A stretch of DNA of 64,000 nucleotides from Bombella apis (lineage in GTDB: Bacteria; Pseudomonadota; Alphaproteobacteria; Acetobacterales; Acetobacteraceae), in assembly GCF_018221685.1 (NCBI RefSeq), contig NZ_JAGJTM010000002.1, forward strand, positions 2,501 through 66,500, read 5' to 3'. A program made the translations under genes and the position numbers. Of the stretch, positions 7,724 to 32,584 are shown one piece after another. The notes under the pieces are model-generated. The model was not told the origin of the DNA and searched no databases. It worked only from the letters and a program-made list of their open reading frames with translations. Position 1 is the first letter of the stretch, and each line of letters starts with the position of its first letter.

Positions 7724-7839
7724 GATGGGGCTGCCGGAGGCTGTATGGTCATTACGCAGTCTTCATGGGGCAGCAACATGGGCCACATGCGGCGTAGTGT
7801 AATGACGGGGAACGGGTGATCTGTTCAGGGAGACATGGA

Positions 7840-8322
7840 ATGAAACGTGTGGGTATTTTGCTGGTCATGGGATGGCTGGGGGTTGTTGGCCCGGTGAGTT
7901 CTGCCGGGGCGCAGATGTTTTCCGGCCATGTGCAGCAGATCAGTGATGTGCGGGACCGGAACGGGTCTTACGTGGGGAGCATCGACGGGGACGGTACACT
8001 GCGGGACCGTAATGGTTCTTCCATTGGCAGCCTTGAGCAGGATGGCCTCATCCGTGACCGGAACGGTGCGTCTTTCGGCAGTCTGGATGATGATGGAACC
8101 GTGCGGGACCGGAACGGCTCGTCTGTCGGCAGTCTGGATGATGATGGAACCGTGCGGGACCGGAACGGGTCTTACGTGGGGAGTATCGACAGGGACGGTA
8201 CCCTGCGTGACCGTAATGGTTCGTCCGTTGGCAGTATTGATAAGGATCGTCTGGGGGAACAGCTCTCCAGGGAAGACCGGACGACGGGTGCTCTGATCCT
8301 GCTGCACCGTCTGCCCCGGTAA
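7840..8322 (+). CDS. secreted protein built of six 17-residue RDRNGSxxGSxDxDG repeats
   Basis: Start at 7840 (MKRVGILLVMGW) has GGGAGA upstream and gives a clear Sec signal peptide, with probable cleavage after SSAGA near residue 24. The mature part is six tandem 17-residue units (51 nt each, 7948-8253) of pattern xRDRNGSxxGSxDxDGT, then a short polar tail ending LILLHRLPR. Length is 160 aa. The spacing of one DRNG turn and one hydrophobic-Gly-Ser strand per unit suggests a closed ring of short beta hairpins, like the beta-flower type repeat proteins. That is inference from pattern. Units 3 to 5 are almost identical at DNA level, which points to recent repeat duplication. Function is unknown. 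Confidence 0.8.
   Translation: MKRVGILLVMGWLGVVGPVSSAGAQMFSGHVQQISDVRDRNGSYVGSIDGDGTLRDRNGSSIGSLEQDGLIRDRNGASFGSLDDDGTVRDRNGSSVGSLDDDGTVRDRNGSYVGSIDRDGTLRDRNGSSVGSIDKDRLGEQLSREDRTTGALILLHRLPR
7948..8253 (+). repeat. six tandem 51-bp coding repeats
   Basis: In-frame direct repeats within the secreted repeat protein. The block GTGCGGGACCGGAACGG recurs at 7948, 8101 and 8152, and the other units differ mainly at third codon positions. Copy number could vary between strains by slippage or recombination. Confidence 0.9.
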
Positions 8323-8954: not shown

Positions 8955-9045
8955 TGGCGGATGGGGTGGGATTCGAACCCACGGTACGCTTCCACGCACG
9001 CTGGTTTTCAAGACCAGTTCCTTAAACCGCTCGGACACCCATCCG
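8955..9045 (-). tRNA. tRNA-Ser (TGA)
   Basis: On the minus strand the sequence begins CGGATGGGTGTCCGAGCGG and ends CCCATCCGCCA, with CCA encoded. The anticodon loop CTTGAAA gives TGA on stem CTGGT/ACCAG. The long variable arm (about 91 nt in total) is the class II form expected of tRNA-Ser. Confidence 0.97.
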
Positions 9046-9149: not shown

Positions 9150-10466
9150 TTACTCTCCATCTTCTCTCAGTGTTGCGAATTTCGCTTTCATGGTCGCATT
9201 CCCCCGTGTGAGCCGCTTGATCGTGACGTCCTGCGCCTTGTCGTTGGCCAGACGCAGGTTGTTGTCTGACTTCAGGAGATTGTCCTTGATCTTCTGAAGA
9301 TGGGAGATGGATTTGTCTATCTCTTCAACGGCTGTGTTGAACTGTTTGTGTGCGAGGTCATAGTTGCGGGCGAAGCCGGTCTTGAACGTCTCCAGCTTCT
9401 CCTCAAAGTTGGTCACGTCGATATTCTGCTGGCGTGTCAGTTCCAGCTCCCGCTTGTAGGTCAGCGCATTGGTGGAGGCATTGCGGAGCAGGGAGATGAT
9501 CTGAAGGAAGAACTGCGGGCGGATGACGTACATCTTCGGGTAGCGGTGGGACACGTCCACGATGCCCGTATTGTACAGTTCGCTCTCGGGTTCCAGCAGG
9601 GAGACAAGCACGGCATATTCGCATTTCTTCTCCGTGCGGTCCTTGTCCAGTTCTTTCAGGAAGTCTTCATTCTTCTTTTTGGTGGCGGTGCTGTCAGCCT
9701 CGTTCTTCATCTCGAACATGATGGAGATGATTTCCGTTCCGCCTTCATCCGCATCCCGGAAGATGTAGTCCCCCTTGCTGCCGGAGCGGGCGTCATTGTC
9801 CTTCTCGAAATAGGCCCGCGGGAAAGCCATCGCCCGTGCCCGGTTGAACTCCACCTCGCAATGCTGCTCCAGTGTTTCACCAACCATCTTGGTGGAGAGG
9901 CGGGCCTTCATGTCTTTCAGCCGTTCGATGTGCTCATTACGGTCCTTCAGCTGAAGTTCGTAATGCTCCTTCAGCCGGGAGGTGGCGAGAGTATTTTTCA
10001 GCTCCGCCTCTTTCAGCGTGTTTTGCAGGGTGTCCCGCTCCTTCTGGACAGCCTCAACCGCTTTGGTGACGGCCAGTTCCTTTTCCGCCGTACCGGCCGC
10101 CAGCCGGGCCTGAAGCTGATGGATCTCCGTCTCCTTGGCCTGCATGGCTTCCTGTAGCTGGGCTTTCCTTTCAGCGTCGGCGAGGCGGGCGGCGGCCTGC
10201 CGGTCCGCCTCGTGCCGCTCGACCTGACTTTTCAGGGCCTGTATTTCAGCGTCACGGGCATGGAGGGCCTGATGCATTTCCTGCTCATGGGCAAATTTTG
10301 CCCGTTCTGCGGCAAGCTGCTCTTCCCGTGCCGCCGCTTCCAGTTTTTCCTGTACCTGCCGGGCAAACTCCTTGTCCCGTACCTGTTTGACGATGTCGGC
10401 ATAGCCTGCATTGTCGAGTGAAAATGATTTATGGCAGTGGGGGCAGGTGATGTCGTGTGTGGCCAT
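9150..10466 (-). CDS. DUF2130 domain protein with zinc-ribbon-like start and coiled coil
   Basis: 438 aa. The N-terminus ITCPHCHKSFSLDNAGYADIV has a single CPHC pair and is the typical opening of DUF2130 proteins. Residues about 30-180 are a long Ala/Glu/Gln/Lys/Arg coiled coil, and the conserved DUF2130 core follows (GETLEQHCEVEFN, SKGDYIFR, IMFEMKNEADST, KYAVLVSLLE-like blocks). The core has a restriction-endonuclease-like look (an acidic residue, then FEMKNE), which fits proposals that DUF2130 is nuclease-related. This is inference. The gene is monocistronic, with tRNA-Ser behind it. Its 5' side holds a CRISPR-like mini-array about 100 nt upstream on the same strand, so it could be read from that promoter. 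Confidence 0.88.
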   Translation of the reverse strand: MATHDITCPHCHKSFSLDNAGYADIVKQVRDKEFARQVQEKLEAAAREEQLAAERAKFAHEQEMHQALHARDAEIQALKSQVERHEADRQAAARLADAERKAQLQEAMQAKETEIHQLQARLAAGTAEKELAVTKAVEAVQKERDTLQNTLKEAELKNTLATSRLKEHYELQLKDRNEHIERLKDMKARLSTKMVGETLEQHCEVEFNRARAMAFPRAYFEKDNDARSGSKGDYIFRDADEGGTEIISIMFEMKNEADSTATKKKNEDFLKELDKDRTEKKCEYAVLVSLLEPESELYNTGIVDVSHRYPKMYVIRPQFFLQIISLLRNASTNALTYKRELELTRQQNIDVTNFEEKLETFKTGFARNYDLAHKQFNTAVEEIDKSISHLQKIKDNLLKSDNNLRLANDKAQDVTIKRLTRGNATMKAKFATLREDGE

Positions 10467-10562
10467 GATGGAAACTCTTTCAGGATTGTGGAAGGTAGTT
10501 GGGAGACAGTTTTCTGATAGTTGGAGAGAAGGGAAGCAGGCCGGCTCATTACGGAGTGGCCT

Positions 10563-10653
10563 TGCTTGATCCCCGCAAGGGCGGGGAACACATTTTTAAT
10601 GGAACCAATAAGGTGATCGGCTATCGGTTCATCCCCGCAAGGGCGAGGATTGG
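10563..10653 (-). CRISPR. type I-E-like mini-CRISPR: two half-degenerate 29-nt repeats, one 33-nt spacer
   Basis: Repeat copies at 10563-10591 and 10625-10653 (21 of 29 identical) enclose a spacer of exactly 33 nt (10592-10624). Read on the minus strand they match the well-known E. coli type I-E repeat architecture: GTGTT, CCCCGC stem, 4-nt loop CCTT, GCGGGG stem, ATGAACCG handle. The upstream copy has lost GTGTT (it reads CCAAT) and has a C-to-T change that keeps a G-U pair. The downstream copy has lost only its last eight bases (ATCAAGCA). The parts that a mature crRNA would keep are therefore intact: the ATGAACCG handle, the spacer, and GTGTT plus hairpin. No cas gene is in the window and no third repeat was seen. 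Confidence 0.82.
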
Positions 10654-10657
10654 ATTG

Positions 10658-10685
10658 TTTGTAATCTAATTTTGCTGGATGACAA
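10658..10685 (-). promoter_or_regulatory. predicted promoter of the mini-CRISPR
   Basis: On the minus strand TTGTCA (10685-10680, 5 of 6 to TTGACA), a 16-nt gap and TACAAA (10663-10658, 4 of 6 to TATAAT). Transcription would begin near 10651, at the outer edge of the first repeat, and run through the array towards the DUF2130 gene. Predicted by eye only. Confidence 0.45.
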
Positions 10686-10700
10686 GAGATTCTTTATAAA
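10672..10700 (+). promoter_or_regulatory. possible divergent promoter within the self-protospacer
   Basis: TTGCTG (10672-10677), a 17-nt gap and TATAAA (10695-10700). The -10 is good and the -35 weak. A start near 10707 would transcribe towards ffh through AAAGGAGG (10731-10738) and a tiny frame at 10724-10759. A second candidate, TTGATC (10701) to TATGGA (10723), overlaps it. Low confidence without transcript data. Confidence 0.35.
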
Positions 10701-10715
10701 TTGATCAGCTATCTT
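10680..10715 (-). promoter_or_regulatory. partial self-protospacer with AAG PAM
   Basis: On the minus strand the AAG at 10715-10713 is followed by a sequence that matches the spacer of the mini-CRISPR at positions 1-5, 7-11 and 14-17. Among the first 17 positions only 6, 12 and 13 differ, and the remainder does not match. Positions 6 and 12 are the flipped-out bases that type I-E Cascade does not read. The 33-bp site covers the -35 of the predicted array promoter and the -10 of a divergent plus-strand promoter-like sequence. Confidence 0.6.
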
Positions 10716-10914
10716 GTTATTTTATGGATAAAAGGAGGCAGGTGGAAACGGCGGGGTAAAAAAGTGAGCTGAGGGCAGTTATCCTGCCTTCTGCCGAGAC
10801 GGGAAAAGCTTGACGGAACTCCAGAGAGGCCGTAAAGGCGTAGGAAGTTTACGGACACGTCACTCCGCGAGGGTTCGCGCAGTGGCGCGTTTGTCATGGA
10901 ATTAAGGATAGCCC

Positions 10915-12336
10915 GTGTTCGAGCAGCTCTCTGGCAGAATGTCGAAAGTTTTCGAAGGTCTTTCCCGCGGGGAGAGGCTTTCGGAGGGTGACGTCACCGA
11001 GGCCATGCGCGAGGTCCGTCTGGCCATGCTGGAGGCCGACGTGGCCCTGCCGGTGGTGCGTAGCTTCGTCAGCAAGGTGAAGGAACGTGCTGTCGGCGGT
11101 GAGGTGCTGGATGGCGTCTCGCCCGGTCAGGCCGTGGCGAAGATCGTCAATGATGCGCTGATCGAGGCTCTGGGTGGTGCTGGTGCGGTGCCGTTGAACC
11201 TGTCGGCTCCGGCTCCAATTCCTTATCTTCTGGTCGGCCTTCAGGGGGCGGGCAAGACCACGACTGCCGGCAAGCTGGCCCTCCGTCTCGCCAGCCGTGA
11301 GCGGAAGAAGGTGCTGCTCGCCAGTCTGGACGTGCAGCGTCCGGCGGCCCAGCTCCAGCTCCAGCAGATCGCCGAGCAGGTGGGCGGACGCACGGATGGG
11401 CTGGTCACCTCCCTGCCGATCGAACAGGGGCAGGGGCCTGTCGAGATCGCCCGCCGTGCGCTGGATGCAGGGCGCCGTGAAGGCTTCGACATCGTCATTC
11501 TCGACACCGCAGGGCGTCTGGCCATTGACGAGGCCCTGATGGATGAGGTCCGTCAGGTCCGTGACGTGGCGAAGCCTGTGGAGACGCTGCTGGTCGTCGA
11601 TGCCATGACCGGGCAGGACGCCGTCAATACCGCACAGTCCTTCAAGGACCAGATCGGCCTGACCGGTGTCATCATGAGCCGCATGGATGGTGATGCCCGT
11701 GGTGGTGCCGCCCTCTCCATGAAGGCCGTGACAGGAGAGCCCATCAAGTTCACCGGGTCCGGTGAGAAGATGGAGGCTCTCGAAGAGTTTCATCCCGAGC
11801 GTGTTGCCGGGCGCATTCTGGGGCTGGGCGATGTCGCCGGGCTGGTGGAAAAGGCGTCCGAGCAGCTCGATCAGGAAGAAGGTGAGCGTGTTGCCAAGCG
11901 GATGCTCGCCGGCAAGTTTGATCTGAATGACTATGTCTCGCAGATCAATCAGATCAATCGCCTTGGCTCCATTTCCGGCATTCTTGGTATGCTGCCGGGC
12001 ATGGGCAAGCTGAAGGATAAGCTGGCGGGGAAGGATCTGGACACGTCCATCTTCAACCGTCACAAGGCGATCATTTCCTCCATGACAGCGCAGGAGCGCA
12101 GCGCACCGGAGATCATCAAGGCGTCACGCAAGAAGCGTATCGCCCTTGGGTCTGGCACGAGCGTTCCGGAGGTCAACCGGCTGCTCAAGCAGTTCAGTGA
12201 GATGTCCACCATGATGAAGCGGCTCAACAAGATGGGCGGCCTGTCTGGTCTGATGCGTGGCATGGGGGGGGCCGGTGGTCTGGGCGATATGTTCAAGGGG
12301 ATGGGAGGTCCGGGAGGCCGTCCACCTTTTGGCTGA
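10915..12336 (+). CDS. ffh: signal recognition particle protein Ffh (SRP54)
   Basis: GTPase that binds 4.5S RNA and the signal sequence of nascent membrane proteins and delivers ribosomes to FtsY. GTG start with AAGGA 6 nt upstream. The N domain is residues 1-95 and the G1 motif GLQGAGKTTTAGK spans 108-120. The DVQRPAA block (about 137-143) and DTAGR follow. The G4 block reads SRMDGDARGG, where TKxD is common. The Met-rich M domain from about 330 has KRIALGSGTSVPEVNRLLKQF and a Gly/Met-rich tail. 473 aa is normal. It leads the operon ffh-rpsP-rimM-trmD-rplS. Confidence 0.97.
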   Translation: MFEQLSGRMSKVFEGLSRGERLSEGDVTEAMREVRLAMLEADVALPVVRSFVSKVKERAVGGEVLDGVSPGQAVAKIVNDALIEALGGAGAVPLNLSAPAPIPYLLVGLQGAGKTTTAGKLALRLASRERKKVLLASLDVQRPAAQLQLQQIAEQVGGRTDGLVTSLPIEQGQGPVEIARRALDAGRREGFDIVILDTAGRLAIDEALMDEVRQVRDVAKPVETLLVVDAMTGQDAVNTAQSFKDQIGLTGVIMSRMDGDARGGAALSMKAVTGEPIKFTGSGEKMEALEEFHPERVAGRILGLGDVAGLVEKASEQLDQEEGERVAKRMLAGKFDLNDYVSQINQINRLGSISGILGMLPGMGKLKDKLAGKDLDTSIFNRHKAIISSMTAQERSAPEIIKASRKKRIALGSGTSVPEVNRLLKQFSEMSTMMKRLNKMGGLSGLMRGMGGAGGLGDMFKGMGGPGGRPPFG

Positions 12337-32080: not shown

Positions 32081-32156
32081 TCCCGAATAGCTCAGTTGGT
32101 AGAGCAAGCGACTGTTAATCGCTGGGTCGTAGGTTCGAGTCCTACTTCGGGAGCCA
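32081..32156 (+). tRNA. tRNA-Asn (GTT), copy 1
   Basis: TCCCGAATAGCTCAGTTGGT at the 5' side, anticodon loop CTGTTAA on stem GCGA/TCGC, T-arm GTAGG TTCGAGT CCTAC and acceptor TTCGGGA with encoded GCCA. First of three identical genes at a 214-nt period. Its upstream flank differs slightly from that of the other two copies. Confidence 0.97.
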
Positions 32157-32294
32157 GCCTTTCATTCAGGTCCGGGCCATATGGCTGCGGGCCTTTTCTG
32201 TATCCGGAGCGGATACGGGTGAAATTATTTTCTAATTTGCTGAAAAAAGGGGCTTTACCTGCCGGAGGAGATTGGCTAGATAGGCTCCAGCTGA

Positions 32295-32370
32295 TCCCGA
32301 ATAGCTCAGTTGGTAGAGCAAGCGACTGTTAATCGCTGGGTCGTAGGTTCGAGTCCTACTTCGGGAGCCA
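32295..32370 (+). tRNA. tRNA-Asn (GTT), copy 2
   Basis: Identical to copy 1. The 138 nt before it hold a terminator-like hairpin (GTCCGGGCC...GCGGGCC and T-run) and a promoter-like TTTACC-17 nt-TAGATA, so it can be transcribed on its own. Confidence 0.97.
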
Positions 32371-32508
32371 GCCTTTCATTCAGGTCCGGGCCATATGGCT
32401 GCGGGCCTTTTCTGTATCCGGAGCGGATACGGGTGAAATTATTTTCTAATTTGCTGAAAAAAGGGGCTTTACCTGCCGGAGGAGATTGGCTAGATAGGCT
32501 CCAGCTGA

Positions 32509-32584
32509 TCCCGAATAGCTCAGTTGGTAGAGCAAGCGACTGTTAATCGCTGGGTCGTAGGTTCGAGTCCTACTTCGGGAGCCA
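32509..32584 (+). tRNA. tRNA-Asn (GTT), copy 3
   Basis: Identical to copies 1 and 2. Its upstream 138 nt match those before copy 2, which indicates a recent tandem duplication. It is followed by the GTCCGGGCC...GCGGGCC hairpin with five T. Confidence 0.97.

What the first reader, a model, noticed from the sequence alone, without database searches (positions are those of the whole stretch)
10563..10653. Orphan two-repeat mini-CRISPR of type I-E character whose decay spares exactly the mature crRNA
Two 29-nt repeats flank one spacer of exactly 33 nt. On the minus strand the shared pattern is GTGTT, CCCCGC, CCTT, GCGGGG, ATGAACCG, the type I-E layout. The copies differ at eight positions. All eight fall in parts that Cas6e cuts off: four in the GTGTT end of the leading copy, one stem base there that stays paired as G-U, and three in the last eight bases of the trailing copy. 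What would remain is an intact 8-nt handle, the spacer and an intact 3' hairpin (62 nt). Random decay would not be expected to respect those borders, so the element looks kept as a single crRNA-like RNA, as in CreR/CreA elements.
Basis: partly seen in the sequence, partly recalled or inferred. Interest (0 to 1): 0.93.

Follow-up and report, generated by a model that had tools for sequence, protein, structure and literature searches.

The report
CRISPR antitoxin guide without its toxin
A bacterium of a likely bee-associated genus carries a tiny two-repeat CRISPR whose critical guide bases match a site right beside itself; in sister species the same pair flanks a predicted small hydrophobic-peptide gene, so it is likely a CRISPR-guided toxin switch that here lost its toxin and would now repress only itself.

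Summary
The element is real, not a decayed array. On the minus strand it reads 29-nt repeat, 33-nt spacer, 29-nt repeat, in a genome with a full type I-E cas operon and a 27-repeat array. Spacer nt 1-5 and 7-11, the published CreA seed, match a site 26 nt upstream behind an AAG PAM, the only seed-complete site with a canonical PAM in the genome. Seven of the ten other genus genomes carry the orthologous element near tRNA-Ser(TGA). Guides differ, yet all eight match 9-10 of 10 seed positions of their own upstream site (4-8 in other genomes, sister pair apart). In the relatives an ORF of 48-73 codons, hydrophobic and with a 5'UTR hairpin, lies between site and element; here it is absent. So this is a CreA-type antitoxin guide, predicted to repress only itself after toxin loss. 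The one genome without cse1 keeps the ORF but lacks first repeat and spacer. In all 7 distinct guides the 5' handle is predicted to pair with the spacer, at one register in 5 of 5 full-length guides versus 2 of 346 array spacers. No RNA or toxicity data exist; a divergent mini-ORF is a rival.

The parts
10625..10653 (-). leading degenerate repeat (psiR1); its last 8 nt (10632-10625, ATGAACCG) form the 5' handle
   Evidence: 14/21 + 8/8 identity to the genome's array repeat
10592..10624 (-). spacer-like guide (psiS), 33 nt, seed ATAGCCGATCA
   Evidence: no match in the phage collection and only a 19-nt match at E 0.9 in two plasmid records
10563..10591 (-). trailing degenerate repeat (psiR2); first 21 nt give the 3' hairpin
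   Evidence: 17/21 + 5/8 identity to the array repeat
10571..10632 (-). predicted mature CreA-like RNA, 62 nt (handle + spacer + 3' hairpin)
   Evidence: inferred from the I-E Cas6e cleavage rule (established knowledge); folds
10680..10712 (-). target (protospacer) of the element's own spacer; nt 1-5 and 7-11 identical, nt 6 and 12 mismatched
10713..10715 (-). AAG PAM of that target
10658..10685 (-). candidate promoter TTGTCA-16-TACAAA leading into psiR1; its -35 lies inside the target; the stretch aligns best with the creT promoter region of G001
   Evidence: weak, and not listed by the consensus scan
10719..10748 (-). second candidate promoter TTTCCA-18-TAAAAT just upstream of the target
   Evidence: 1 found, 0.4 expected from shuffles
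10534..10567 (-). stem resembling the terminator that follows psiR2 in relatives; no T run here
10724..10759 (+). divergent 11-codon mini-ORF with tandem AGG-AGG codons and no Shine-Dalgarno in front (rival toxin candidate)
9150..10466 (-). DUF2130-type protein gene between the element and tRNA-Ser here; upstream of the module in relatives except G008 (family label recalled, not scanned)
8955..9044 (-). tRNA-Ser(TGA), the conserved neighbour of the module
10915..12336 (+). ffh-like gene on the other side (label recalled)

Best explanation
The element is the orthologue of the guide gene (creA) of a likely CRISPR-regulated toxin-antitoxin family found near tRNA-Ser in this genus, and it is predicted to make a 62-nt crRNA-like RNA that would lead type I-E Cascade to the seed-matching site 26 nt upstream of itself, where relatives carry a likely toxin gene that is absent here. 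Mechanism (inferred): transcription reads through psiR1-spacer-psiR2; Cas6e cuts both repeat hairpins; the RNA loads Cascade; partial pairing (nt 1-5 and 7-11, AAG PAM) binds without cutting and blocks the promoter. In relatives that would silence a small hydrophobic-peptide gene, so losing Cascade would release it (CRISPR addiction). Here the target runs almost straight into creA, so the guide would repress only itself: an autoregulated antitoxin left after toxin loss. Predicted in all seven distinct CreAs: the 5' handle pairs with the spacer's second half, which I infer makes CreA a weak competitor for Cascade and the switch sensitive to Cascade shortage. Shown: sequence matches, synteny, ORFs, cas genes. 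Inferred: transcription, processing, repression, toxicity, the role of the stem.
For: Operon cas3-cse1-cse2-cas7-cas5-cas6e-cas1-cas2 in the genome. Seed-complete sites in the genome: 8, one being the spacer itself; of the other 7 only the adjacent one has a canonical PAM. Eight of 11 genus genomes have the two-repeat element (G002, G006, G007 lack it). All 8 have a same-strand upstream site with AAG (6) or ATG (2) PAM and 9-10 of 10 seed matches; cross-genome values are 4-8 except the sister pair G005/G009; 0-2 of 2000 shuffles reach the observed value. Toxin-like ORF at the module in 7 of those 8 and in G007, not in G000, G002, G006. The psiR skew of published creA genes (PMC8501985). No leader like that of the two arrays before the element (by eye). 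Stem after psiR2 resembles the relatives' terminator. Handle nt 3-8 all paired to RNA nt 24-34 in 5 of 5 full-length CreAs versus 2 of 346 array spacers (register chosen after seeing the folds), with compensatory pairs at handle nt 4, 5 and 8.
Against: No toxin ORF at the G000 module, so the defining partner is missing. Candidate promoters are weak, and the resemblance to a relative's creT promoter region is modest: best of eight comparisons, 4 of 500 shuffles as good. The terminator stem has lost its T run. G002 and G006 have cse1 but no module, so the module is dispensable. Guides of G001, G004 and G009 have one seed mismatch. With the seed kept, 9-32% of shuffled spacers pair as many handle bases, and the guides are related to each other, so the stem rests on the register and the compensatory changes. 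No transcripts or toxicity data. One genome only shows the toxin-less state, so recent decay cannot be told from retention.
Confidence: 0.66

Rival explanations
1. The toxin is not lost but replaced: a minimal divergent CreT lies on the plus strand, a mini-ORF ATG-GAT-AAA-AGG-AGG... just past the target, whose promoter (TTGCTG-17-TATAAA) the target covers; two tandem minor arginine codons would act as in archaeal CreT.
For: Divergent mini-ORFs just past the CreA target are published for type I-F CreTA in Acinetobacter (33-bp ORF; PMC10097628, passages). Tandem minor arginine codons are published for archaeal CreT (PMC8501985). AGG is uncommon here, 10 of 2436 codons in six genes. Position fits.
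Against: No Shine-Dalgarno before the ATG; AAAAGGAGG is itself a Shine-Dalgarno-like string; seen in no relative's locus read here; the -35 is poor (3 of 6) and the consensus scan does not list the promoter. In relatives the toxin-like ORF is between target and creA, on creA's strand.
Confidence: 0.18
2. A CreR-type cas regulator: a crRNA-like RNA that represses the cas operon promoter.
For: Same RNA architecture; not coupled to a toxin, as described for CreR (review PMC12737573, passages).
Against: No seed-complete site with a canonical PAM in the genome except beside the element; best run in the 19.5-kb cas region is 8 nt, without PAM.
Confidence: 0.04
3. A dead relic: the toxin was deleted, the guide is no longer expressed, and the target match is a recent leftover.
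For: Terminator T run lost, weak promoters, toxin absent; G002 has lost the module and keeps only a terminator-like stem.
Against: All ten seed positions, the PAM, the handle and the handle-spacer stem are intact, and both repeat stems still pair (one G-U), while the outer repeat ends have changed.
Confidence: 0.1
4. An ordinary short CRISPR array acquired from phage or plasmid DNA.
For: Repeat family and spacing resemble I-E arrays.
Against: No leader, unlike the two real arrays (by eye); no phage match and only a 19-nt plasmid match at E 0.9; diverged repeats; orthologous element in seven relatives with a target beside it.
Confidence: 0.02

Closest known systems
CreTA of Haloarcula hubeiense, type I-B (two-psiR creA; PMC8501985)
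   Same: Two divergent degenerate repeats; handle kept in psiR1, 3' handle kept in psiR2; seed nt 1-5 and 7-11 pair with an upstream promoter next to a PAM; one operon with CreA repressing its own promoter
   Different: Type I-E; not at the cas locus (module and cse1 1.14 Mb apart on one contig in G001); relatives encode a 48-73-aa hydrophobic peptide rather than a six-codon ORF; here the toxin is missing
CreTA of Citrobacter rodentium, type I-E (PMC12055562, passages)
   Same: Type I-E Cascade; ATG PAM; toxin is a translated small ORF; partial match at the promoter
   Different: There it sits between cas3 and casA with creA on the opposite strand; here near tRNA-Ser, same strand; no sequence comparison with that ORF was made
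CreTA of Acinetobacter, type I-F (PMC10097628, passages)
   Same: Two psiRs with hairpins, partial target near the toxin
   Different: 33-bp divergent ORF, toxic as RNA; found in cas3-csy1 intergenic regions
CrePA (protein toxin under CreA; review PMC12737573, one section)
   Same: A protein-coding gene under a CreA-type guide
   Different: CreP typically carries a KilA-N domain; the peptides here match no Pfam family at E 1
CreR cas-regulating RNA (review PMC12737573, passages)
   Same: crRNA-like regulator without toxin
   Different: No seed match with PAM in the cas region here

Membership tests
CreA / CreTA | one or two degenerate repeats outside the arrays, psiR1 keeping the handle and psiR2 keeping the 3' hairpin | tested here: met
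   psiR1 14/21 + 8/8, psiR2 17/21 + 5/8
CreA / CreTA | seed nt 1-5 and 7-11 matching a nearby site with PAM | tested here: met
   10 of 10, AAG, the only one with canonical PAM in the genome; 9-10 of 10 in all 8 elements
CreA / CreTA | toxin gene (creT) driven by the targeted promoter | tested here: not met
   no toxin-like ORF at the module in G000 (its one hit, E 0.689, lies elsewhere); the ORF is present in the 7 other genomes with creA and in G007. Hence 'creA orthologue', not 'complete CreTA'. A divergent mini-ORF is not excluded
CreA / CreTA | cognate type I effector in the genome | tested here: met
   eight I-E cas genes, each over the cut-off of at least one NCBIfam model (cas3 by its core and HD models; the full-length model was below its cut-off)
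CreA / CreTA | no CRISPR leader | tested here: met
   leader motif of the two true arrays not in front of the element (by eye)
CreA / CreTA | Cas6 processing, Cascade-dependent repression, toxicity of creT | not testable with these tools
   needs RNA and cells
CreR | seed match in a cas promoter | tested here: not met
CrePA | CreP with KilA-N domain | tested here: not met
   7 peptides of relatives, 0 Pfam families at E 1
CRISPR array | leader, near-identical repeats, foreign spacer | tested here: not met

The most novel reading that the evidence does not exclude
A CRISPR antitoxin that outlived its toxin: deletion of the toxin fused its promoter to the guide, leaving a self-silencing crRNA-like RNA; and CreAs of this genus carry a built-in stem in which the 5' handle is masked by the guide's own second half, a tuned weak-competitor design that lets the switch read free Cascade.
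Probability: 0.4. Interest if true: 0.82.

Novelty: new variant of a known kind. Interest (0 to 1): 0.74.

Why it matters
CreTA modules evolve so fast that they are hard to find by sequence. Here one genus shows a whole range of states among 11 genomes: seven with target, ORF and guide, six distinct guide-target pairs among them; one with guide but no toxin-like ORF; one with the ORF but neither cse1 nor an intact guide; one with only a terminator-like stem; one without a trace at this place. That makes the addiction idea testable by comparison and experiment in a bee symbiont, and it shows that such modules need not sit in the cas locus. The covarying handle-spacer stem is, as far as the texts seen here go, an undescribed trait of CreA and suggests how a regulatory guide could be set to lose against immune crRNAs.

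Tried and rejected
CreR (cas promoter as target): no seed-complete site with canonical PAM outside the neighbourhood; canonical means AAG, ATG, AGG, GAG, TAG, recalled for E. coli. Phage or plasmid spacer: none convincing. Known toxin family for the peptides: Pfam none at E 1, NCBIfam two matches far below cut-off. Toxin family outside the genus: of 200 family genomes drawn evenly, 16 had a hit at E 0.1 or better, two of them genus members; the other 14 were weak, best E 0.0028 in a 693-aa frame, and I take them as chance without looking further. The protein database gave 5 relatives at E 1, one named Parasaccharibacter apium. The genome-contig scan with the DUF2130-type protein returned 80 distant bacteria and no member of the genus, so it gave no names. 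Codon-position counts favour coding only mildly (G001/G007: 13, 7, 14 differences at positions 1, 2, 3; four other pairs nearer even), so translation of the ORF is likely, not proven. The G000 target-to-repeat stretch aligned with eight relatives' stretches: 4 of 500 shuffles as good for G001, 28 G003, 35 G005, 78 G008, 91 G007, 148 G010, 200 G009, 453 G004. Free energy of handle plus spacer is not unusual in CreAs (22 to 201 of 346 array spacers as low); only the handle pairing and its register stand out. The consensus scan also lists a plus-strand terminator-like site inside the trailing repeat, 10570-10587, which I take as the repeat's own hairpin.

Full report
Observation. The minus strand 10653-10563 reads 29-nt repeat, 33-nt spacer, 29-nt repeat, with eight differences between the copies, as reported. 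The genome (G000, 2,041,954 bases in 6 contigs) has a 27-repeat I-E array with repeat CTGTTCCCCGCCTACGCGGGGATGAACCG and a short three-repeat array just after the cas operon, both preceded by a similar leader-like stretch (leader judged by eye). Against that repeat, seven of the eight differences are changes in the parts Cas6e would discard and one, the first base of the trailing copy, is in the kept part. A type I-E operon of eight genes is present.

Where it comes from. All 11 genomes held for the genus have tRNA-Ser(TGA). Seven of the ten other than G000 carry a two-repeat element some 0.1-0.3 kb upstream of it on the same strand (the first repeat pattern missed the elements of G008 and, in part, G010). 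The genus is likely Bombella/Parasaccharibacter: a protein of G005 is listed as Parasaccharibacter apium on a contig of 215,939 bases, the length of G005 contig 4 (the link of the two genus names is recalled). In G000 the element lies on the far side of the DUF2130-type gene, about 1.5 kb from the tRNA; in G008 the module directly follows the ffh-side sequence. The stem after psiR2 resembles the terminator after psiR2 in relatives. G002 keeps only such a stem, and in G006 the place is different and shows no trace; both have cse1. G007 is the only genome without cse1 and lacks psiR1 and spacer; other cas genes were not searched in the relatives.

Guide and target. For each of the 8 elements I took the first 17 nt after the handle and searched 586 nt upstream, same strand, for sites with PAM AAG, ATG, AGG, GAG or TAG. 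Every element has a site with 9 or 10 of 10 matches at positions 1-5 and 7-11: G000, G003, G005, G008 and G010 have 10; G001, G004 and G009 have 9. PAMs are AAG in six and ATG in two. With other genomes' regions the values are 4-8, except for the sister pair G005/G009, whose guides are the same; 0 to 2 of 2000 mononucleotide shuffles reach the observed value. In G000 the match is 1-5 and 7-11 with mismatches at 6 and 12, the rule shown by mutation for CreA in Haloarcula (PMC8501985, section on promoter repression read). In the whole genome AAGATAGCNGATCA occurs once without mismatch. The seed alone occurs 8 times, once in the spacer itself, and of the other 7 only this site has a canonical PAM.

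What the target controls. In the 7 module-bearing relatives and in G007 the target is followed by candidate promoter hexamers (good in G001, G004, G005 and G009, weaker in G003, G007, G008 and G010), a 5'UTR stem-loop of varying sequence, a Shine-Dalgarno-like string and an ORF of 48-73 codons with a hydrophobic stretch. The ORFs are alignable but match no Pfam family at E 1. In the genus the family profile finds them with E below 1e-15 in 8 of 11 genomes, each at this locus; all other hits have E above 0.2. Hydrophobic short peptides are typical of type I toxins (PMC12737573, passage); toxicity here is untested. In G007 the ORF is intact but the promoter hexamers upstream score lower than in its nearest counterpart G001, as expected if the ORF is harmful when unguarded; this is one case.

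G000 in particular. Only 26 nt separate target and psiR1, with no room for such a gene on that strand. A weak promoter (TTGTCA-16-TACAAA) starts inside the target and points at psiR1, and a second candidate lies just upstream. Cascade bound at the target would be expected to hinder either, so the guide would repress its own transcription. In H. hubeiense CreA likewise represses the promoter of its own operon (PMC8501985). The difference is that the toxin is gone. An 11-codon plus-strand ORF with AGG-AGG just past the target is the main rival; divergent mini-ORFs are published for type I-F CreTA.

A stem inside the guide. Folding handle plus spacer, all 7 distinct CreAs (the G009 guide equals that of G005) have at least 6 of 8 handle bases paired with the spacer; 35 of 346 array spacers do, these being the distinct spacers held in the fetched loci of nine genomes. 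Of the five full-length guides, 5 of 5 pair all of handle bases 3-8 with RNA positions 24-34; 2 of 346 array spacers do, 12 if five pairs suffice (the register was chosen after seeing the folds, and the two guides with about 20-nt spacers, G004 and G010, were left out). Handles differ between species (ATGAACCG, ATGGCCCG, ATGACCCG, ATGGCCCA) and partners change with them: handle base 5 is A-U in four and C-G in three, base 4 A-U, G-U or G-C, base 8 G-C, G-U or A-U; one unpaired cell in 42. With fully shuffled spacers the per-guide chance of 6 or more is 11-18%, with the seed kept 9-32%. When handles are exchanged, the G003 and G010 spacers lose much of their pairing with the common handle; the G008 spacer pairs more bases but less stably; the G001 spacer folds slightly more stably with two of the other handles. 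The guides are related, so these are not seven independent cases. I read the stem as selected and propose that it weakens CreA in competition for Cascade; that role is conjecture.

Prior art. Two-psiR creA, its seed rule and self-repression are known (PMC8501985: outline, first part of results, promoter section, discussion, passages). A translated toxin under I-E CreTA is known in Citrobacter rodentium (PMC12055562: passages). CreR and CrePA are summarised in PMC12737573 (passages, one section). Type I-F CreTA: PMC10097628 (passages); repeat degeneration: PMC9458426 (passages). The 2025 paper on Bombella apis CRISPR (PMC12282179: outline, abstract, passages) has zero occurrences of 'toxin' and 'CreT' in its main text; its orphan arrays average 30.9 spacers. 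The searches listed no title or abstract on a toxin-less creA or a handle-spacer stem in CreA; subscription papers, including the original Science report, were not available.

Verdict. A real creA orthologue, new for this genus as far as searched, with its target beside it and its toxin missing.

Noticed in passing
L195 (G000:C4:253500-258500), repeat at G000:C4:256112-256135 minus strand: A second ectopic repeat (handle ATGGCCCG) divergent from a small ORF that begins like an exported peptide; related repeat and ORF sequence occur in G007, which lacks cse1 (L199). Best same-side target 8 of 10 seed matches with TAG in G000, none with a PAM in G007, so its role is open.
   Followed up: partly
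L196 (G000:C4, just after cas2, about 26292): Short three-repeat I-E array with decaying repeats and a leader-like stretch similar to that of the 27-repeat array on contig 1.
   Followed up: no
L060 (G007 contig 1 module): The one genus genome without cse1 keeps the toxin-like ORF but lacks psiR1 and spacer: a natural test of the addiction idea.
   Followed up: partly
L056 and L061 (G010 and G004 modules): CreA guides with spacers of about 20 nt instead of 32, yet with 10 and 9 of 10 seed matches and a handle-spacer stem.
   Followed up: partly
window 7816-8322 plus strand: ORF made largely of DRNGS-type repeats behind a hydrophobic start.
   Followed up: no
window 32081-32584: Three tRNA-Asn genes in tandem at a constant spacing of 214 bases.
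   Followed up: no
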